A stretch of 10,539 bases of DNA from Treponema sp. (GTDB lineage Bacteria; Spirochaetota; Spirochaetia; Treponematales; Breznakiellaceae): assembly GCA_009786675.1 (NCBI GenBank), contig WQRP01000039.1:2117-12655 (forward strand). The letters are read 5' to 3'. The notes under the pieces are model-generated. The model saw only the letters and a program-made list of their open reading frames with translations, was not told the origin of the DNA and ran no database searches. Below, piece by piece: positions 2-9,998 of the stretch. Positions within the stretch are counted from its first letter, which is position 1. Every line of letters begins with the position of its first letter. Both the position numbers and the translations under genes were made by a program.

Positions 2-3000
2 CAAGGTTCGGTACGCATAATCAATGGAACCGTTTACGGCAACGAGTCGGCGGTGGCAACGGTGCTTAGGAACACGGCTCCCGAAGGCGCGGCCTTGTAT
101 GGCACAGCCTATGGCGGCAGATCCGGCGATATTGACACGTTTGGACCAATAATTGTTACTACCGACAACAGCATACGCGCGGTAAGTGGTGTTCTCCAAA
201 TGGAACGCGATGCCGCGGGCAACGTAAAAGTTCCCAGGACATCCCTTTGGCAGCAGGTTAATTGGCTGCAAAGCTGGGCCCTATCCGGCGGCAGGTATCT
301 TGTCCAATTAAACGATGATGAAGACGGTGGCTTCAGGCTTGCCTTCGACGGCAGGAGCGACATTACGATTACTCTTCGCGGTACAGGGGAAATGCGTGCC
401 ATTATTGGTCTTGGCATTTGGGTATATCACGGTATTACCTTGGTGTTGGACAATAACGTCACCCTACAAGGCAGGGAAGATAACTTTAATACATTGGTAA
501 GGGTCAACGGCGGGACTTTAATCATGAACGATGGCTCGGCGATTACGGGCAATACAGTTAATGGATTCGGATCCGGCGGTGGCGTGTCCGTTGGGGGTAA
601 TGGCACTTTTGTCATGCATGGCGGAAAGATATATGGCAATAGCGCACGGAATGGCGGCGGCGTAATCGTTTTCAGTGGCGGCACGTTCACCATGCATGAC
701 GGAAAAATTAATAACAATAGTAGTGCACAACATGGCGGCGGCGTACACGTCTATCCCGGCGGCACGTTTGCCATGAAGGGCGGGGAAATTTCCGGCAACA
801 CGGCTTCAATGGGCGCTGGTGTGTGTGTTGGACGGGGTGGAAGACCTGCCACGAACCACGCTGATGGAATGTTCGTTATGCATGGCGGAAATATCTTTGG
901 CAATACGGCTTCTTTCGGTGGAGGGGTGGCGGTCGATAGGGACGGTACGTTCGACAAGCGCGACGGGATACTGTCCGGTAATACAGCGAGTTCTGGTGGT
1001 GGCGGGGTATTTATTGTGGACGGTACTTTTGACATGCGCGGCGGTGAAATCTTTGGTAACACCGCAGGAAATCATGGTGGCGGCGTGAGCGTCCAAAGCG
1101 GCATATTTAACATAAGCGACGGTGTCGTTTACGGCAATGAGTTGCATCACGGGGAACGCGGAAATAGAGGCTCTGTCAACTGCGCGGCTTTGAACTTATT
1201 CCGCAGCGATTCAAGCACAGCCCAACATGGCACTTTCTGCGTTTCCGGTGGTTCCTTTTACACGGTGGGTTTTTTGGGCACTACCAACAACACCATACGT
1301 GTGCGGGACGGGGTTTTGTTCGTCCTGGTAACCGGAATAATCGGCGTGCCGACTTCAACGATGGCGGGAACTCCCCTGGCCCTGAATGCCGCGGTTGTCC
1401 CGGCCAACGCGACCAACCAGGCAATTGCTTGGAGTGTGCAAAACGCTGGAACCACCGGCGCGGCCATAAGCGGCAACACGCTTAACACGACGGCCGCTGG
1501 AACGGCGACGATCAGGGCAACCATAGTCGATGGTTTGGCTGTAGGGATTCCATTCGTGCAGGATTTTGCCGTAACGGTGAACCCTTTGTTTATACCGGTA
1601 GCTAATATCTCCAACGTGCCGAACACGGCGACCGTGGGAATTCCCCTGGTTCTAACTGGCACGGTTGCTCCGGCGAACGCGACCAACAGGGCGGTTACCT
1701 GGGGCGTCGCGGACGCCGAAACCACCGGGGCGACAATTGCCGAAGGGAATATCTTTACCGCTACGAATCCTGGGATTGCAAGGGTAAGGGCGATCGTAGC
1801 CAACGGGACGGCTCCGGGAACATACTTCACCATGGACTTTACCGTCTCGGTGCAACCGGCGTTCGTACCGGTATATGAAATAACCGGCGTGCCGGTTTCA
1901 ATGATGGCGGGAACGTCTCTGGTTCTGGCCGGCGCGGTTGTCCCGGATAACGCAACCAACGGAACGATTGCGTGGAGCGTCCATAGCGCGGGGACCACTG
2001 GCGCGAACATCAGCAGCGGCAATACGCTTAACGCCGCGTCCGTTGGGACGGCAACCGTAAGAGCTACCATTGTCAACGGGACGGCCTTGGGGACGAATTT
2101 CGTTAGGGATTTTGAAATAGCCGTAATTGCCGTTCCGCTTATCACTTGGGAAGCAAGCCCCGTCGGTAACCAAACCACAACCGCAATCAACTTTTACTTC
2201 AGTGCCGATCCGGGACTGATGTTTGAGACGAACATTACGATTTCTTCCGTAACGGGCTCGGCAACCAGAAGCATTTTGTCCGGCACCGGGACGACCCGGA
2301 CCTTGACGGTTTTCAATGTAGTCGCCGGAACCGTGTCGGTTTCCATTAGCAGGACTGGAATTGCAAGCGGGTCTCAAACAGTGGCGGTTGTCGCGCCGGA
2401 TGTTACCTGGATCGCAAACGCATCCGGCAACCCAGTAACAACCGCGATAAACTTTAGCTTTAGTCGCGATCCCGGGCCGCTGGTCGCGGCGAACATTGCG
2501 GTTACCTCCGGATCCGGTTCGGCAACGAGAGGCGTGTTGTCCGGCACTGGAACGACCCGGACCTTGACGGTAACTCCCGTAAGCGCCGGAACCGTATCGG
2601 TTTCCATAAACCGGAGCGGCATCGCGGGCGGACCGGAGACGGTGACAATTCTTAGGCCGACCGTAACCGGCGTTACCGTAAGCCCGCCAGCCGCAACCGT
2701 CGCAAGGGGCGGAACGCAGGGCTTTACCGCCACGGTCGCCGGAACCGGCAACCCCCCGCAGGCGGTTAACTGGACAATCGATGGTGGCGGGCCTTCCACC
2801 ATCAACTCTGGTGGTGTACTGACGGTAAATGCCAACGAAAACCGCGCGGCGCTTACGGTGCGGGCGACATCGACCGTTGCCGGTTTCACGAATGTCAGCG
2901 GAACGGCGACGGTGACTTTGACCGGGGTGCCCGGCACAACTCTTGCCGACCGATTGGCCTGGCTGCGAGCAAATGCCCAAAGTGGCGGCGAATACCTGCT

Positions 3001-4414
3001 TGAAATAAGTGGTAACGAAGTTATAACTCCTGCCCAGGCTGCGCTGCCCGCCGGCAGGACTAATCTTACCATTACCCTTCGTGGTGGCGGGGGAATGCAA
3101 AGCATCAGCCTTCCCGCTGCGCCGGGCACAGCCAACGAGGGCTCTATATTTGCCATAGGTTCCGGCGTTACCCTGGTGCTGGACAGCAACGTTACCTTGC
3201 AGGGCAGGAACAACAACGACAGTCTGGTACGAGTTGGAAACGGCGGTGCCTTGGTCATGAACGACGGATCGGTTATCACGGGTAATCGTGGTACTATTCG
3301 AGTTTACGGCGGTGGCGTGCGCGTTGAAAATGGCGGGGTTTTTACCATGAATGGCGGTGAAATATCGGATAATATTGGTAACATCAGTTCTTCTGGCGGC
3401 GGTGTGTTTGTTGACAGTGCCGGAATATTTACCATGTATAGCGGGGTGATTTCCGGTAACAGGGTCGGCCAAAACGGTGGCGGTGTGCTGGTTGTGGGAA
3501 CATTAAACATGCGCGGCGGAACAATTCGCGACAATATTGGCTCAGGCCCCTCCTTTTCTGGTGCTGGCGGCGGTGGCGTGGTTAATGTGGGCACCTTCAA
3601 TATGTGCGGTGGCACAATATCAGGTAATAGTGCTCCTGCGGGCTTCGGCGGCGGTGTGGGTAATACGGCTATCTTTAACATGCGCGGAGGAACAATATCC
3701 GGGAATACCGCTGGAATTAACGCTGGCGGCGGCGGCGTGGCTAATTCAGGAACCTTCAACATGCACGCTGGGATAATCTCGGTTAATTCCACTGGTGGCG
3801 GCGGCGGTGGTGTCCGCAATGAGGGCACTTTCGTCATGCACGATGGGACAATTTCTGGTAATTACACTCAGGGTTCTATGGGTGTTCTTCTTCCGAGTGG
3901 CGGCGGCGTGTGGAATTCTGGTGTTTTTGACATGCGTAATGGTACAATTTCCGACAATCGTACTTATTCTGGCTCGGCCACCGGTGGTGGCGGTGTGTTT
4001 AATCGTGATGGCATTTTTACCATGTACAATGGGACAATATCCGGAAACGTTACCAGGTTTTCTGGTGGCGGCGTGCGTGTTTACACGGGATATTTTTATA
4101 TGCACGGCGGGACAATATCCGGCAATGATGTAAGGAACGGCGGTGGTGGAGGCATTGGTGTTTTGACAGGAACCTTCCGAATAAGCAACGGCATCATTCA
4201 CGGCAACGAGGAAACATTGGCGGCGGGGCTTAGAAACACGGTTGCCTCTGGTGGCGCGGCATTATCGGACTTCGGTCTTGGCACGGTTCAACGCGGTACT
4301 TTTTCCAACGGCGTGTTTACCCTGTTGGAAACTTTGCCTTCTGGTGTTGGCGGCTTTTCCGTCAGCGACACCATAGAAGTGATGAATGGCATCTTGATAA
4401 GACCGCAGCTATAG
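2..4414 (+). CDS. Giant repeat surface/secreted protein (Pmp-like beta-helix modules plus Ig-like domains), 5' partial
   Basis: The window holds 1470 residues of this protein, ending with TAG at 4412-4414. A GTG at 53 could be read as a start, but the same frame is open back to base 2 and already encodes a module end (VRIINGTVYGNE), so the start lies upstream. Numbering from base 2: end of an upstream module (about 1-80); module 1 (81-445) with a linker containing ITITLRG and LVLDNNVTLQGR, then Pmp-like repeats; three 90-residue Ig/BIG2-like domains (446-710); two 87-residue Ig-like repeats (714-885); one more BIG2-like domain (886-977); module 2 (979-1470) with a matching linker (LTITLRG, LVLDSNVTLQGR) and repeats. 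The repeats carry GGGV and I-x-GN motifs, as in Chlamydia Pmp proteins and other parallel beta-helix adhesins. A role in adhesion or surface display is inferred. The C-terminus stops at a module boundary: I see no autotransporter barrel, LPXTG or membrane segment. Any signal peptide would be outside the window. Confidence 0.85.
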   Translation, partial: QGSVRIINGTVYGNESAVATVLRNTAPEGAALYGTAYGGRSGDIDTFGPIIVTTDNSIRAVSGVLQMERDAAGNVKVPRTSLWQQVNWLQSWALSGGRYLVQLNDDEDGGFRLAFDGRSDITITLRGTGEMRAIIGLGIWVYHGITLVLDNNVTLQGREDNFNTLVRVNGGTLIMNDGSAITGNTVNGFGSGGGVSVGGNGTFVMHGGKIYGNSARNGGGVIVFSGGTFTMHDGKINNNSSAQHGGGVHVYPGGTFAMKGGEISGNTASMGAGVCVGRGGRPATNHADGMFVMHGGNIFGNTASFGGGVAVDRDGTFDKRDGILSGNTASSGGGGVFIVDGTFDMRGGEIFGNTAGNHGGGVSVQSGIFNISDGVVYGNELHHGERGNRGSVNCAALNLFRSDSSTAQHGTFCVSGGSFYTVGFLGTTNNTIRVRDGVLFVLVTGIIGVPTSTMAGTPLALNAAVVPANATNQAIAWSVQNAGTTGAAISGNTLNTTAAGTATIRATIVDGLAVGIPFVQDFAVTVNPLFIPVANISNVPNTATVGIPLVLTGTVAPANATNRAVTWGVADAETTGATIAEGNIFTATNPGIARVRAIVANGTAPGTYFTMDFTVSVQPAFVPVYEITGVPVSMMAGTSLVLAGAVVPDNATNGTIAWSVHSAGTTGANISSGNTLNAASVGTATVRATIVNGTALGTNFVRDFEIAVIAVPLITWEASPVGNQTTTAINFYFSADPGLMFETNITISSVTGSATRSILSGTGTTRTLTVFNVVAGTVSVSISRTGIASGSQTVAVVAPDVTWIANASGNPVTTAINFSFSRDPGPLVAANIAVTSGSGSATRGVLSGTGTTRTLTVTPVSAGTVSVSINRSGIAGGPETVTILRPTVTGVTVSPPAATVARGGTQGFTATVAGTGNPPQAVNWTIDGGGPSTINSGGVLTVNANENRAALTVRATSTVAGFTNVSGTATVTLTGVPGTTLADRLAWLRANAQSGGEYLLEISGNEVITPAQAALPAGRTNLTITLRGGGGMQSISLPAAPGTANEGSIFAIGSGVTLVLDSNVTLQGRNNNDSLVRVGNGGALVMNDGSVITGNRGTIRVYGGGVRVENGGVFTMNGGEISDNIGNISSSGGGVFVDSAGIFTMYSGVISGNRVGQNGGGVLVVGTLNMRGGTIRDNIGSGPSFSGAGGGGVVNVGTFNMCGGTISGNSAPAGFGGGVGNTAIFNMRGGTISGNTAGINAGGGGVANSGTFNMHAGIISVNSTGGGGGGVRNEGTFVMHDGTISGNYTQGSMGVLLPSGGGVWNSGVFDMRNGTISDNRTYSGSATGGGGVFNRDGIFTMYNGTISGNVTRFSGGGVRVYTGYFYMHGGTISGNDVRNGGGGGIGVLTGTFRISNGIIHGNEETLAAGLRNTVASGGAALSDFGLGTVQRGTFSNGVFTLLETLPSGVGGFSVSDTIEVMNGILIRPQL
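509..1141 (+). repeat. Pmp-like beta-helix repeat array, module 1 (about 8 units)
   Basis: This is a run of about eight protein-level tandem units of 24-36 residues, each of the form G-T-F-x-M-x-G-G-x-I-x-GN-T-A...GGGV. The units are diverged at DNA level, so the array is old and under selection, not a fresh expansion. The last unit (IFNISDGVVYGNE) has the module-closing form also seen at the left window edge and near 4180-4210. One unit carries an insertion with GRPATNHAD at about 838-866. Confidence 0.8.
1337..2125 (+). repeat. Three tandem Ig/BIG2-like domains of about 90 residues
   Basis: Three successive copies begin at 1337, 1607 and 1880; the shared GTGCC word lies at 1346, 1616 and 1889, giving periods of 270 and 273 bases. 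Each reads roughly: GVP, AGT-P-L-x-L, V-x-PANATN-x-x-I-x-W-x-V, TTGA-x-I, GTA-x-x-RA-x-I-V-x-G. This matches bacterial Ig-like group 2 domains, which commonly act as stalks or spacers in surface proteins. The middle copy is the most diverged. Confidence 0.8.
2141..2656 (+). repeat. Two tandem 87-residue Ig-like repeats
   Basis: Two copies start at 2141 (ITWEASPVGN) and 2402 (VTWIANASGN), a 261-base period. They share TTAINF-x-FS-x-DPG, SATR-x-x-LSGTGTTRTLTV and AGTVSVSI. The stretch 2279-2310 and its counterpart 2540-2571 differ at only 2 of 32 bases, so this pair is a more recent duplication, or more recently homogenised, than the three preceding Ig domains. A single unrelated BIG2-like domain follows at 2657-2935. 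Confidence 0.75.
3242..4210 (+). repeat. Pmp-like beta-helix repeat array, module 2 (about 12 units)
   Basis: About twelve units of the same class as module 1 occur here, with a tighter consensus of F-N-M-x-GGTISGN followed by GGGGV. Asparagine, glycine and short aliphatic residues at regular spacing fit a parallel beta-helix. Several units contain in-frame GGC/GGT runs (3724-3740 and 3794-3812) that could slip by whole codons. The array closes with FRISNGIIHGNE and a tail (TIEVMNGILIRPQL) that ends the protein. Confidence 0.8.
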
Positions 4415-5944: not shown

Positions 5945-7522
5945 TTATTCCCCCTCGTACCCGTTGTACGCGAACTCGCCAAACCGCGCGAACTTTCCGC
6001 CCGCCTCCACGCCGTTGGACGAGGCGTACATGCCTATCGTCGTGCCGACGAAACCCCCGGCAACGTCGGTGCTTAGAATTCTCGCGTCGGCATTTCCGCA
6101 CACCACCGTGTAGTTTTGCCCGTCCTGCCCGTACCCAAAGGAAAGCTCCTGGCCCTTGGCGATAATTCGCAGGAAAATACCGGCGTCGGTTGGGACCTTG
6201 CAGTTATGTTCGGCCAGGATTGTTTCCTCGCCGTTGTCGCACTTTATAAGCCGCAGTACCCTGTCGTCGTTTTTCAGCGTAAGCACGAATTGGTAATGGT
6301 ATTTGTGGTTTTGAAATATCACAAGCCCGGCGCATTCGTTTTCCGCGTCGGGCCGGAACTGCATGTGCGCGTGCGCGCCGAAGCTCATGTGCTGCTGCCT
6401 AATGCAGCAGTAGCTTACGGTGTTCAGTTTCGTGATAGGGTTTTTGTTAAGCCGCAGATGCAGGCCCTTTTCCGGATCCGAGTTTTTGATCGCGTAGTCC
6501 TCGGTTGCCGGGTTGCGTAGGAACAGCATGTTCATCGGGAACTCAGGGATCTTGCCGAAGTCGTAGGACGTGCAGAACTTTCCCGTGCCCGGTGCGAGAT
6601 CCGGGGCGCGCTCCGTTTCCTGCACCAGGCCTATGCCGTAGTTTGCGACCGGCCATCCGTCCTCCCAGGACACCGGCACCAGAAAGGTTTCCCTGCCCAA
6701 ATTCCTGTACCGCCCGCCGTAGGGCCTGGAAGCCAAGAGCACCATCCACCATTCGCCGCTCGGGGTTTCCACCAGATCCCCGTGGCCCACGTTCACGATG
6801 GGGTAGTCCCGCCCCAGATGCCGGTGGGTCAGTATCGGGTTGCACTTGTGGCCCTCGTAGTATCCAGTAAGTGTTTTGCTGCGGGCGACGGTGATGGCGT
6901 GTTCGTGGGCCGTGCCGCCCTCGGATATTAACAGATAATAGTATTCGCCTATTTTGTAGACGTGCGGGCCCTCCGGCCACACGGCGTTCTTAAGCGCGCT
7001 GTGCCAAATCGCGTGGCGCTCGCCCACCAGTTCCATCTTCGCAAGGTCAAGTTCCTGCAGGTAGATCTCGTTGTCGCCGTAGTACTTCCCCCCCTCCCTG
7101 CGTTCGCAGGTTCCGTGGTAATAGCATTTGCCGTCCGTGTCGAAGAACAGCGAAGGGTCAATGCCGTTCGCCCCCTCGATGTAGTGCGGATCCGACCAGG
7201 GCCCCCTGGGTTCCGTGGCCGTCACGACGAAATTGCCGCCGCCTGACACGTTGGTGGTTATCATGTAAAACGTGCCGTCGTGGTAACGAATCGTCGGCGC
7301 GAATATTCCCCGCGAAACCTCGGCCCCTTCCAACGGCAACTGCCCGGGTCTGTCGAGCACGTTGCCAATCTGTCGCCAGTGGATCAGGTCCGTGCTGTGG
7401 AATATCGGCACGCCCGGAAAATAGGCGAAGGTCGACGCGACCAGGTAAAAATCCTTGCCAACCCTGCACACGGAAGGATCCGGGTAGAAACCGGGCAGAA
7501 TTGGGTTCCTAAAAATCTTCAT
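5945..7522 (-). CDS. Glycoside hydrolase family 43, beta-xylosidase type
   Basis: This 525-residue enzyme is expected to release xylose (or arabinose) from the non-reducing end of xylo-oligosaccharides. The N-terminal five-bladed propeller (about 1-310) has the three GH43 acids: D15 in GFYPDPS (base), D122 in NGIDPS (pKa modulator) and E184 in WPEGPH (acid). H248 in VGHGD is also conserved. Residues about 315-525 form the beta-sandwich domain typical of GH43 beta-xylosidases (subfamilies 11/12 by resemblance). There is no signal peptide (it starts MKIFRNPILPGFYPDPS), so it should act in the cytoplasm on imported oligosaccharides. The ATG at 7522 has AGAGG (7529-7533) 6 bases upstream. No transporter or other xylan gene is in the window; its divergent neighbour is the transposase-like gene. 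Alpha-L-arabinofuranosidase activity is the main alternative. Confidence 0.92.
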   Translation of the reverse strand: MKIFRNPILPGFYPDPSVCRVGKDFYLVASTFAYFPGVPIFHSTDLIHWRQIGNVLDRPGQLPLEGAEVSRGIFAPTIRYHDGTFYMITTNVSGGGNFVVTATEPRGPWSDPHYIEGANGIDPSLFFDTDGKCYYHGTCERREGGKYYGDNEIYLQELDLAKMELVGERHAIWHSALKNAVWPEGPHVYKIGEYYYLLISEGGTAHEHAITVARSKTLTGYYEGHKCNPILTHRHLGRDYPIVNVGHGDLVETPSGEWWMVLLASRPYGGRYRNLGRETFLVPVSWEDGWPVANYGIGLVQETERAPDLAPGTGKFCTSYDFGKIPEFPMNMLFLRNPATEDYAIKNSDPEKGLHLRLNKNPITKLNTVSYCCIRQQHMSFGAHAHMQFRPDAENECAGLVIFQNHKYHYQFVLTLKNDDRVLRLIKCDNGEETILAEHNCKVPTDAGIFLRIIAKGQELSFGYGQDGQNYTVVCGNADARILSTDVAGGFVGTTIGMYASSNGVEAGGKFARFGEFAYNGYEGE

Positions 7523-7559: not shown

Positions 7560-7590
7560 AGTATACCACAAAAAATTGACTCCGGGGCAA
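7560..7590 (-). promoter_or_regulatory. Extended -10 promoter for the GH43 gene
   Basis: Read on the minus strand, TGG-TATACT is an extended -10 (TATACT at 7565-7560). The best -35 is TTGCCC (7590-7585), with a long 19-base spacer, so the promoter probably relies on the extended -10 or an activator. Transcription would start near 7553, leaving a leader of about 31 bases with the AGAGG ribosome binding site. Its elements interleave with those of the plus-strand promoter. Confidence 0.5.
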
Positions 7591-7601
7591 TTATTGGTAT
7601 A
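7562..7601. promoter_or_regulatory. Nested dyad symmetry between the divergent promoters, candidate operator
   Basis: TATACCA (7562-7568) and TGGTATA (7595-7601) form a perfect 7-base inverted repeat around 26 bases. Nested inside, AATTG (7574-7578) and CAATT (7588-7592) form a second inverted repeat around 9 bases. The two centres, about 7581.5 and 7583, nearly coincide. The outer arms carry the extended -10 of each promoter and the inner arms lie in the -35 regions. The outer symmetry partly follows from two divergent TGGTATA -10 boxes; the inner one does not. Confidence 0.4.
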
Positions 7602-7603
7602 AT
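7576..7603 (+). promoter_or_regulatory. Near-consensus promoter for the transposase-like gene
   Basis: TTGACT (7576-7581), a 16-base spacer and a perfect TATAAT (7598-7603) preceded by TGG (extended -10) predict a start near 7610. This leaves a leader of about 80 bases before the ATG at 7692. The leader has no obvious strong hairpin or Shine-Dalgarno. A second weak -10-like TAAAAT lies at 7668-7673 but has no -35. Confidence 0.6.
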
Positions 7604-7691
7604 GGCCAACCCCCTTAGCTAAATTCACGCGGGAAAATTTCACTCCCAAAAGTCTGCCGGTGGGTGTTAAAATACTTCTATTGGGTAAAGT

Positions 7692-8897
7692 ATGAGCGAG
7701 GAAACTTTGGACAAAATTACCCTCATCCGAGGTGTCGCAGAGGGCAGGTATACCGCCAGGGATGCTGCAAAACGTCTTGGCCTTGGCGAAAGGAGGGTAT
7801 TGCAGCTTAGGAAGATATTCGTTGAGCGGGGCGAGGATTCCCTTGTGCACGGCAATTCCGGGAGATCCCCGGCGAACCGCAAGGACGACGAGTTCCGGGA
7901 AAAAATTATCGTCCTGAAAAACACGCCGCCTTACAAGAACAGCAACATTACCCAGTTCTGGGAAATGCTTGTCGAGCGCGAGGGCATACGGATAAGTTAC
8001 TCGACCCTTTCCGCGATTCTTAAAAGCGCGGGGATTGAGTCCGGGCGCAGCCACAGGGAAGGCAAGCGCTTTAGGTGGCGTAAGCGAAGGAAATCCTTTG
8101 GCGAGATGCTGGAAATCGTCGCCGCCCGCCATGACTGGCTTGGGAACGGAAACCCCTGTATGCTCTACGGGGTTTTCGACGACGCGACCGGGCGCATAAC
8201 GGGTATGCATTTCTGCAAGGGCGAGTGCATGATGGGATACCTGGAGGTCTTGCGCCAGACCCTTTCGACCTACGGTTTTCCCCTGGAACTGTACTCGGAG
8301 AAAACCGGGCTTTTTTTCGGGGCCAGCGAAAAGGGAAGGTACCTGGCCGGCGACAAAACCATGCTTGGCCACATTGTCGAGGATCTTCTTGGCATAGGCA
8401 TAACGGACGAAAACACGATCCCCAGCAAGGGCTGCATCGAGCGCCTGTGCGTGGTCCTGCGGGATCGCCTGGCGGACTGGTTCAAAACGCGGGGCGTGAC
8501 GGATATCGATCATGCCAACCGCGAGCTGGGCCACTGCGTATCCTTGTACAACAAAAATTTTATCGTCAAGCCTCGGAAAACGAAATCCCATTTCGAGCCG
8601 CTGAACGCTTCCTTCGACATGAACAGGTTTCTTTCCGTCCGTTACGAGATTAGCACCGACGACGACGGCCGCTTCTCTTTCAAGGGATTTGTTTTCCGTG
8701 TCGATTCGCCGGAACCCGTCGCCAAAAAGAAAATCTGGTTCCTTTTTGGCCGCGAGATCGGATTTCTTGCGTTGCACGGCAGGGGACATTACCCGGTCCT
8801 TCTTTTGGGCTCGGAAAACGACGAGCCCGCCGTCGACGTCCTCGACGCCCTTGTGCGCGAAAGCTATTACGGCGAGTTGGGCGGGCGGCCCCCTTGA
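7692..8897 (+). CDS. ISNCY-type transposase-like protein with degenerate catalytic triad
   Basis: The 401-residue product follows ISNCY-like transposases along its length: an N-terminal helix-turn-helix (about 8-46, RDAAKRLGLGERRVLQL), a GNSGRSPANR linker, a second winged-helix-like region (about 65-115), an RNase H-like core (about 135-265) and a C-terminal beta-rich domain (about 300-375). In the core, the position normally held by the first catalytic Asp (family pattern QIDGSxHDW) reads EIVAARHDW, so D is replaced by V143. The second (YSDK) is E203 in YSEK. The glutamate is kept as E250 in KGCIERL, as is FDDATG (162-167). Transposition activity is therefore unlikely, yet there is no frameshift or internal stop and the promoter is strong. 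ATG 7692 is the first start after an in-frame TAA at 7686; it lacks a clear Shine-Dalgarno. I find no flanking terminal inverted repeats. Either a domesticated DNA-binding protein or a recently inactivated element is possible. Confidence 0.8.
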   Translation: MSEETLDKITLIRGVAEGRYTARDAAKRLGLGERRVLQLRKIFVERGEDSLVHGNSGRSPANRKDDEFREKIIVLKNTPPYKNSNITQFWEMLVEREGIRISYSTLSAILKSAGIESGRSHREGKRFRWRKRRKSFGEMLEIVAARHDWLGNGNPCMLYGVFDDATGRITGMHFCKGECMMGYLEVLRQTLSTYGFPLELYSEKTGLFFGASEKGRYLAGDKTMLGHIVEDLLGIGITDENTIPSKGCIERLCVVLRDRLADWFKTRGVTDIDHANRELGHCVSLYNKNFIVKPRKTKSHFEPLNASFDMNRFLSVRYEISTDDDGRFSFKGFVFRVDSPEPVAKKKIWFLFGREIGFLALHGRGHYPVLLLGSENDEPAVDVLDALVRESYYGELGGRPP

Positions 8898-8922
8898 AAT
8901 TCGCGCCCCCGCGGCGTATACT
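8894..8922 (+). promoter_or_regulatory. Strong promoter abutting the UPRT-like start codon
   Basis: TTGAAA (8894-8899), a 17-base spacer and TATACT (8917-8922) form a near-consensus promoter. The -35 overlaps the TGA stop (8895-8897) of the preceding gene. Transcription would start at about 8928-8931, at or within a few bases of the ATG at 8931, so the transcript should be leaderless or nearly so. Confidence 0.6.
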
Positions 8923-8930
8923 GCCCTTTG

Positions 8931-9998
8931 ATGAGCAAAATCGTTCTAAGGGCCGAGGATCTCGACGGGTACCTGACCGCGCAGGACAGGGAATGCCTTG
9001 CCGCGATGGACGGCCTGTACGCCCGGGTGGTGGAATCGTTTTCCCTGCTCGACTCCGGCCTGCCGGCGGAACGGCGCAAGGGGGAGGACGGCGTAATCTC
9101 GCTGTACAACCAAATGGGCGCCGCGATGCAGGAAATCTGCCGCCGGGCTCCGGGCATCCACGTCCACGGCTTCCGCAGCTCCCTGGAAAGCCAGCCGGAG
9201 GTTTCCCGGCTTATCGCGAAGCTTAGGGACGTGCGGACGGGCCACGGGGAATTTGTCTATTACATACAGCGGGCCTACGAGATACTGTTCAGGCTTGCCT
9301 GGGGCGGCAGGGCCGGCTCGGAAAAGACCCACCTTATAGTCAAGACGCCGGTTGACAGCCCGGTGCAGAACTACGCCGTGCACAAGATCACCAACATAGA
9401 CGACAAAATCGAGAACACCGTGATGTGCGTTATGCTCCGGGGGGCGCTGCTGCCGTCGATGATCATGAGCAAGGAGATCCAGGAATACTCGTCGCACGGC
9501 TACGTTACGCCGTTCGCCCTGTTCAGCATTAGGCGGGACGATTCCAGAAAGGAAACCGATATGGAGTACGTCCTGGATCTCGACCGCTCGTATTTCAGCC
9601 CGGGGGCCCTGGACGGCAGGGATCTGGTCTTCGCCGATCCCATGAACGCCACCGGCGGGAGCCTGGTAACAATAGTAAAGTACCTTTTGGGGGCCGGAAT
9701 CAGGCCAAGGTCGATTCGGTTTTTCAACGCGATCGCCGCGCTCAAGGGCGCGCTTAGGGTGGTCAGGGCCCTGGAAAACTGCGAGATATACACGCTTTGG
9801 ATGGATCCGGTTCTGAACGAGCGGGCGTACATCCTGCCCGGCCTTGGCGACGCCGGGGATCGCATCAACGGAATGGACGGGGAAACCCATCCCAGGAACA
9901 TAATCCAGCTGCTCGCGGACTACGGCGACAACATCGCCAGGCTGTACCGCTCCCAGCTTAGGGAAATCGAGGACACGGTGCTATCCCGCCGGCGCTGA
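8931..9998 (+). CDS. upp: Uracil phosphoribosyltransferase-family protein, long form
   Basis: The expected reaction is uracil plus PRPP to UMP and diphosphate, the pyrimidine salvage step, in the cytoplasm. Of 355 residues, about 90-316 match UPRT: an [15 protein letters not shown] block (94-108), [11 protein letters not shown] (166-176), the PRPP loop DPMNATGGS (236-244) and the uracil-binding [12 protein letters not shown] (300-311). Bacterial Upp is about 208 residues; this one adds some 85 N-terminal and 40 C-terminal residues of unknown role. The PRPP loop has N239 where Upp has Leu (DPMLATGGS). ATG 8931 is preferred over TTG 8928, and neither has a Shine-Dalgarno (preceding bases CTGCCCTTTG). 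The gene is in the same frame as the preceding one, separated by its TGA and 33 bases. The family is clear, but a changed specificity or a regulatory role cannot be excluded. Confidence 0.82.

What the first reader, a model, noticed from the sequence alone, without database searches (positions are those of the whole stretch)
7692..8897. Intact transposase-like gene with a broken catalytic triad: candidate domesticated DNA-binding protein
The protein keeps the helix-turn-helix, fold-defining motifs (FDDATG, KGCIERL) and full family length. By my motif alignment, two of the three acidic catalytic residues are changed (D to V143, D to E203). A dead insertion sequence usually gathers stops and frameshifts; this frame is clean over 401 codons, has a near-consensus promoter and shows no terminal inverted repeats. 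That combination suggests co-option, perhaps as a regulator.
Basis: partly seen in the sequence, partly recalled or inferred. Interest (0 to 1): 0.7.

Follow-up and report, generated by a model that had tools for sequence, protein, structure and literature searches.

The report
Retired transposase kept as DNA-binding protein
A jumping-gene enzyme from a Treponema-like spirochaete has lost its cutting site but not its DNA-grip or shape, belongs to a whole branch of similarly disarmed proteins, and probably now works as a DNA-binding regulator.

Summary
It is not an isolated broken copy: 22 proteins with changed triads form one clade (support 100/100, catalytic columns removed) among intact-type transposases. 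The three nearest relatives (61-69% identical) are full length and share the changed triad and derived residues. Positions that hardly vary in intact relatives are mostly kept in the DNA-binding domains (79-88%), less so around the old active site (47%). Clade members lie more often on contigs of 5 kb or more (13 of 22) than intact ones (1 of 44). Best reading: a co-opted, catalytically dead DNA-binding protein that probably regulates its own promoter. Chief rival: an inhibitor of sibling elements. dN/dS, relatives' neighbourhoods and targets could not be tested; no genome of the window's species was held.

The parts
7692..8897 (+). Catalytically dead (by residues) IS1202/ISNCY_2-type transposase-derived protein, 401 aa; alternative start TTG 7707
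7692..8051 (+). [quoted passage not shown]
   Evidence: Pfam HTH_29; helices between residues 3 and 112 in the model; 79% and 88% of near-invariant positions kept
8073..8585 (+). RNase-H-like core, residues 128-298
8118..8120 (+). Codon 143, GTC Val in place of the first catalytic Asp
8298..8300 (+). Codon 203, GAG Glu in place of the second catalytic Asp
8439..8441 (+). Codon 250, GAG Glu, third catalytic residue kept
8592..8894 (+). C-terminal region with a beta barrel, residues 301-401
   Evidence: strands 316-374 in the model; weak TnsB match at profile positions 312-393
7576..7603 (+). Sigma-70-like promoter TTGACT-16-TATAAT, 11 of 12 matches
7621..7647 (+). Internal transposase-binding repeat of an IS end (proposed operator)
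   Evidence: left-end profile 13.0 bits at 7620-7648, best of 100 shuffled windows 7.3; right-end profile 20.4 bits at 7618-7650, best of the same shuffles 13.1; 25 of 27 bases as in L115's right end, 24 of 27 as in L043's left end
8894..8922 (+). Promoter-like TTGAAA-17-TATACT before the next gene; overlaps the stop codon of the transposase-derived gene
8931..9998 (+). Uracil phosphoribosyltransferase-like gene, neighbour; not part of the element
5945..7522 (-). GH43 beta-xylosidase-like gene, divergent from the transposase-derived gene across 169 bp; possible but untested target

Best explanation
The gene descends from an IS1202-type insertion-sequence transposase of Treponema-like spirochaetes. 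The lineage lost the catalytic residues, most simply once, and kept the protein as a DNA-binding protein. Shown: changed triad; one clade of 22 proteins with changed triads; better retention of the helix-turn-helix domains than of the active-site region; an RNase-H fold in the model; an internal IS-end repeat 44 bp upstream of the ATG; no other end found in the window by profile. Inferred: the protein still binds this repeat; because the repeat lies just downstream of a strong-looking promoter, binding would repress the gene's own transcription, and may affect the divergent GH43 gene and further sites in the genome. My odds: about 0.8 that the protein is maintained for something other than its own transposition, about 0.5 that this is DNA-binding autoregulation through the retained site.
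For: Triad V-E-E in the window, A-E-E, S-E-E, A-E-E in P0002, P0003, P0004. 22 changed-triad proteins are one clade, 100/100, with the columns around the catalytic residues and the adjoining loop removed (with 13 such rows 100/97). D203E and F225L occur in 13 of 13 clade members compared. Fourteen positions are fixed in the four nearest and differ from an at least 85% consensus of 29 intact-type rows, among them R248C and W253C near the third catalytic residue. Positions at least 95% conserved in those rows are kept at HTH1 79%, HTH2 88%, helix 179-200 90%, against 47% between the second and third catalytic residues; within the four, that last region is 67% identical, in the range of the others (56-83%). 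Neutral simulation, 300 runs for each of three window pairs: 4.3-5.3 stops on average; conservative changes 0.255-0.265 on average against 0.35-0.37 observed. Codon-position GC 0.55/0.41/0.71 against 0.41 in the intergenic DNA. Longest contig 5 kb or more: 13 of 22 clade members, 1 of 44 intact rows. IS-end repeat and promoter.
Against: No dN/dS: DNA of P0002-P0004 was not available. The simulation is weak by itself: some runs had no stop, one of three observed conservative fractions exceeds the largest of its 300 runs, and protein collections list open frames only. The fraction (0.34-0.38 over the six pairs) is below that of 305 intact pairs of similar identity (0.405, sd 0.040), so constraint looks looser. 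GC3 (0.71) is below that of four of five neighbours (0.77-0.81). Nine of 22 clade members are short (302-356 aa). P0239 in the clade reads E-D-D, all acidic, and P0007, counted as intact-type, reads E-D-E. No conserved locus shown. The upstream repeat matches right ends (read inward) better than left ends (20.4 against 13.0 bits), so it might be a remnant of another, inverted element rather than this gene's own left end. No binding or expression data.
Confidence: 0.55

Rival explanations
1. Trans-acting inhibitor of sibling insertion sequences: the dead protein binds the ends of intact relatives in the same cell and blocks their transposase, and is kept as protection against them.
For: Relatives, whole or decayed, occur in 42 of 195 genomes of the family; the site beside the gene is nearly identical to ends of elements in those genomes (25 of 27), so specificity may be shared; near-invariant HTH positions are mostly kept; the RNase-H fold is kept in the model.
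Against: Whether the window's own genome holds siblings is unknown. Over their whole length HTH1 and HTH2 are only 53-55% identical to intact rows, against 64-68% among intact rows. Not exclusive of autoregulation.
Confidence: 0.25
2. Ordinary decaying IS copy whose frame happens to be still open.
For: No second end found, triad lost. Copies in sister genomes are commonly decayed: 29 of 93 match rows contain stops and 9 of 93 cover 300 or more of the 401 residues, though contig ends also cut some. Single copies with changed triads exist outside the clade (P0040, P0043 G-D-E; P0134 G-G-G; L036 D-G-E).
Against: Three full-length relatives at 61-69% identity share the changed triad and derived residues; one clade of 22; simulation.
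Confidence: 0.12
3. Still an active or assisted transposase: other acidic residues (for example D148 or E203) serve as metal ligands, or the protein works in a mixed complex with an intact sibling.
For: D148 and the third E are kept; Glu is acidic; one clade member is E-D-D and one intact-type relative E-D-E.
Against: D148 is present in most intact relatives too, so it is no substitute; 21 of 22 clade members have no acidic residue at site 143, and site 203 is E, K, G, A or D; no second end in the window, so this copy could not move as an IS.
Confidence: 0.06

Closest known systems
IS1202 family (ISNCY group; NCBIfam NF033594), e.g. TnpAjo2; PMC10132070 (passages seen)
   Same: Two N-terminal HTH domains, RNase-H fold, beta barrel; triad D142-D203-E247 at corresponding places; outer ends TGT/ACA and a second, internal transposase-binding site near each end, as seen here in intact relatives.
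   Different: Triad V-E-E; score 0.6 bits under the curated cut-off; one internal end repeat only, no outer end recognised.
TnsB of Tn7/CAST, IstA of IS21, MuA
   Different: Those are transposases with their catalytic residues; here two of three are changed.
TldR, RNA-guided transcription factors (start of the abstract of PMC13418256 seen in listings; their origin from TnpB nucleases that lost activity is recalled)
   Same: A transposon-encoded enzyme lineage that lost catalysis and was kept for regulation.
   Different: RNA-guided; the present protein is a DDE-type protein with its own HTH domains.
Eukaryotic domesticated DDE transposases such as CENP-B (recalled, no call)
   Same: Catalytic residues lost, DNA binding kept.
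   Different: Eukaryotic, other superfamilies.

Membership tests
IS1202/ISNCY_2 transposase (sequence family) | Score at or above the NCBIfam NF033594 cut-off of 250 bits | tested here: not met
   249.4 bits, E 6e-74, short by 0.6 bits. P0002, P0003, P0004, P0042, P0158, P0164 score 210.9-237.9; intact P0009 368.8. Homology is not in doubt.
IS1202/ISNCY_2 transposase (sequence family) | HTH-HTH-RNaseH-beta-barrel architecture | tested here: met
Active IS1202-type insertion sequence | DDE catalytic triad | tested here: not met
   V143, E203, E250
Active IS1202-type insertion sequence | Two terminal inverted repeats with TGT/ACA outer ends | tested here: not met
   Profiles of 14 left and 9 right ends each give one clear place in the window, the same site upstream of the gene, and none downstream
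Active IS1202-type insertion sequence | Several copies in the genome | not testable with these tools
   No genome held
Domesticated (co-opted) transposase | Loss of catalytic residues shared by a clade, not by one copy | tested here: met
   22 rows, 100/100; P0239 among them is E-D-D
Domesticated (co-opted) transposase | Purifying selection after the loss | tested here: inconclusive
   Protein-level simulation leans that way; dN/dS not computed
Domesticated (co-opted) transposase | Conserved single-copy locus | tested here: inconclusive
Transcription regulator | Specific binding to an operator | not testable with these tools
   Candidate site 7621-7647 only

The most novel reading that the evidence does not exclude
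A whole family of catalytically dead IS1202-type transposases in Treponema-like spirochaetes is a standing cellular function: the proteins bind the shared end repeats of still-active sibling elements, repressing both their own promoter and the siblings' movement, a transposon-derived, protein-only immunity against transposons in bacteria.
Probability: 0.22. Interest if true: 0.85.

Novelty: new variant of a known kind. Interest (0 to 1): 0.62.

Why it matters
Co-option of transposases that lost catalysis is familiar from eukaryotes (recalled). Five searches aimed at dead, domesticated or exapted transposases (titles and starts of abstracts seen, 10 of 29 and 15 of 16 hits listed, all hits in the others) showed no catalytically dead bacterial DDE lineage, and the passages I saw of the review PMC8987985 (12 of 22 places) speak of HTH factors and of Cas1, not of this. 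That is a limited library, so it is no proof of absence in print. A clade of 22, with intact siblings whose ends carry nearly the same repeat, makes the change from enzyme to binder directly testable, and shows that automatic 'transposase' names can hide such proteins.

Tried and rejected
Clade members in held genomes: none found. These loci come from 195 genomes of one family, 390 drawn from the order, overlapping with it, 274 of another family, genome contigs (first scan nothing, second 22 loci) and viral contigs (nothing, then 2 loci). Limits: only the best 4 or 6 candidates of a genome were scored, at most 9; a few further near-identical copies in G290 were not fetched.

Neighbourhood through GH43: 52 of 195 genomes have a relative at E 1e-60, best near-full-length identity 49-50%, so no clear orthologue; dropped.

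Outer part of the left end: the stretch before the 27-bp repeat does not align convincingly with the outer repeat of intact elements (by eye); only the inner repeat is claimed. The left-end profile used 14 of the 20 ends in which a motif was found, out of 22 tried. Ends of the G290 and G242 elements against the flanks gave one notable score in eight comparisons (3 of 200 shuffles), and the window's own two flanks 24 of 500.

Structure of an intact relative folded alone (P0009): mean pLDDT 35, useless. The PDB sequence match (TnsB, E 1.6e-8) does not cover the first two catalytic positions, so the triad was placed by family alignment and secondary structure.

Rows dropped: the tree left out changed-triad fragments P0140, P0238, P0241 and the rows P0232, P0237, P0240, P0242, P0243; its 42 other rows include P0040, P0043 (G-D-E) and P0007 (E-D-E), which were not counted as changed. 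P0134 was in no tree; L036 (D-G-E) was in the trees, uncounted; one search left out P0136, P0040, P0043. L055 aligned badly and is not used. The contig comparison used 22 and 44 rows with lengths copied; P0038, P0040, P0041, P0043, P0132, P0133 and more distant rows were not in it. 'Intact' means D, D, E present; activity was not shown.

Full report
What is there. The + strand ORF 7692-8897 codes for 401 aa without a stop. It matches NCBIfam ISNCY_2 transposases (249.4 bits, cut-off 250) and Pfam HTH_29. The AlphaFold model made with 76 sequences is confident (mean pLDDT 87.6, pTM 0.73) and its best PDB matches are TnsB, IstA, MuA and retroviral integrases. The published architecture of IS1202-family transposases is the same, with a triad D142-D203-E247 in TnpAjo2 (PMC10132070, passages seen).

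The triad. Aligned with its relatives the protein has V143, E203 and E250.

Not alone. P0002, P0003 and P0004 (69, 65 and 61% identical) are full length and read A-E-E, S-E-E and A-E-E. Two profile searches added more. A maximum-likelihood tree of 64 rows, with the columns around all three catalytic residues and the adjoining loop removed, puts all 22 rows labelled broken in one clade with support 100/100, nested among 42 other rows. Those 42 are D-D-E except P0007 (E-D-E) and P0040 and P0043 (G-D-E), which lie elsewhere in the tree (P0007 near the clade); the 22 include P0239, which is E-D-D and long-branched. Earlier trees with 14 and 13 such rows agree (99, and 100/97). Thirteen of 13 members compared share D203E and F225L; among members found later site 203 also shows K, G, A or D, and P0136 keeps F225. 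So the old active site drifts within the clade, and 21 of 22 have no acidic residue at site 143.

Signs of maintenance. Positions at least 95% conserved in 29 intact-type rows (118 positions) are kept in the four nearest proteins at 79% (HTH1), 88% (HTH2), 72% (121-178), 90% (179-200), 47% (201-247), 61% (248-300) and 74% (301-401); within the four, region 201-247 is 67% identical, in the range of the others. Fourteen positions are fixed in the four and differ from the intact consensus. Neutral simulation from the window's gene to the divergence of its three pairs yields 4.3-5.3 stops on average, but none in some runs, and 0.255-0.265 conservative changes; observed are 0.370, 0.360 and 0.351, about 2.7 standard deviations higher, with one of the three above the largest of 300 runs; intact pairs of similar identity average 0.405. 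This leans to selection but is not proof, because collections list open frames. Codon-position GC is 0.55/0.41/0.71; GH43, TrpB-like, UPRT and TPR genes have 0.77-0.81 at the third position, the long repeat ORF 0.57. Clade members lie on longer contigs (median 7,989 against 1,831 bases; 22 and 44 rows), as expected if intact ones are repeats that break assemblies; this is only a proxy for copy number.

The upstream site. Many left ends of intact-type elements have the form TGT...GATAATTTCACCCC...GGGAAAATTTCACCCC... before the start codon, with matching right ends, as the IS1202 paper describes: an end repeat plus an internal second binding site. A profile of 14 left ends gives one clear place in the window, 7620-7648, in the expected orientation: 13.0 bits, best of 100 shuffled windows 7.3. 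A profile of nine right ends read inward gives the same place, 7618-7650, with 20.4 bits against 13.1, and nothing downstream of the gene. The 27 bases agree at 25 positions with L115's right end and at 24 with L132's right end and L043's left end. The two ends of these elements resemble each other inside, so the site may be this gene's own left end or a remnant of another element; its place 44 bp before the ATG favours the former. If age alone left 60% identity (my assumption), 24 or more of 27 would occur with probability 0.001. The outer end is not recognisable; a TTGACT-16-TATAAT promoter (7576-7603) stands there, so the site would lie in the first tens of transcribed bases.

Neighbours. 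The UPRT-like and TPR genes downstream are together in 20 of 20 loci held. A TATACT box shortly before the UPRT start is seen by eye in 12 of 21 upstream stretches and in the window, where its -35 overlaps the stop codon of the transposase-derived gene. The gene thus sits as an extra unit beside an older promoter. GH43 is divergent across the same 169 bp; whether it is a target is unknown.

Mechanism. Most likely the protein binds the retained repeat through its HTH domains and represses its own promoter. An inhibitor of sibling elements is the chief rival and could be true as well. A simple dying copy is unlikely given the clade.

Limits. No clade member was found in any held genome. The host assignment rests on loci titled Treponema sp., P0003's source name and UPRT identity up to 78%.

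Noticed in passing
window 2-4414: Very long open frame with Ig-like stretches and glycine-rich 'GGxIxGN' repeats (by eye), probably a surface or secreted repeat protein, cut by the window edge.
   Followed up: no
window 8894-8931 and L062-L081, L129: The UPRT-like gene seems to have a promoter whose -10 box ends 8 bases before the ATG, so its mRNA may be leaderless; a similar box is seen by eye in 12 of 21 upstream stretches.
   Followed up: partly
P0134: Intact-type relative with G at all three catalytic positions and other changes that look like many A-to-G changes; probably a decaying copy.
   Followed up: no
P0040, P0043: Two relatives outside the clade have lost only the first catalytic Asp (D to G).
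   Followed up: partly
P0051, P0129, P0130, P0131, P0135, P0165: Several clade members end near the same point, shortly before the beta barrel: a shared or repeated loss of the C-terminal part.
   Followed up: no
L121: One IS end appears to lie directly beside the end of another related IS.
   Followed up: no
window 7692-7707: Start codon uncertain: ATG 7692 has no clear ribosome-binding site (by eye); TTG 7707 has GAGG upstream and fits the starts of P0001 and P0002.
   Followed up: partly
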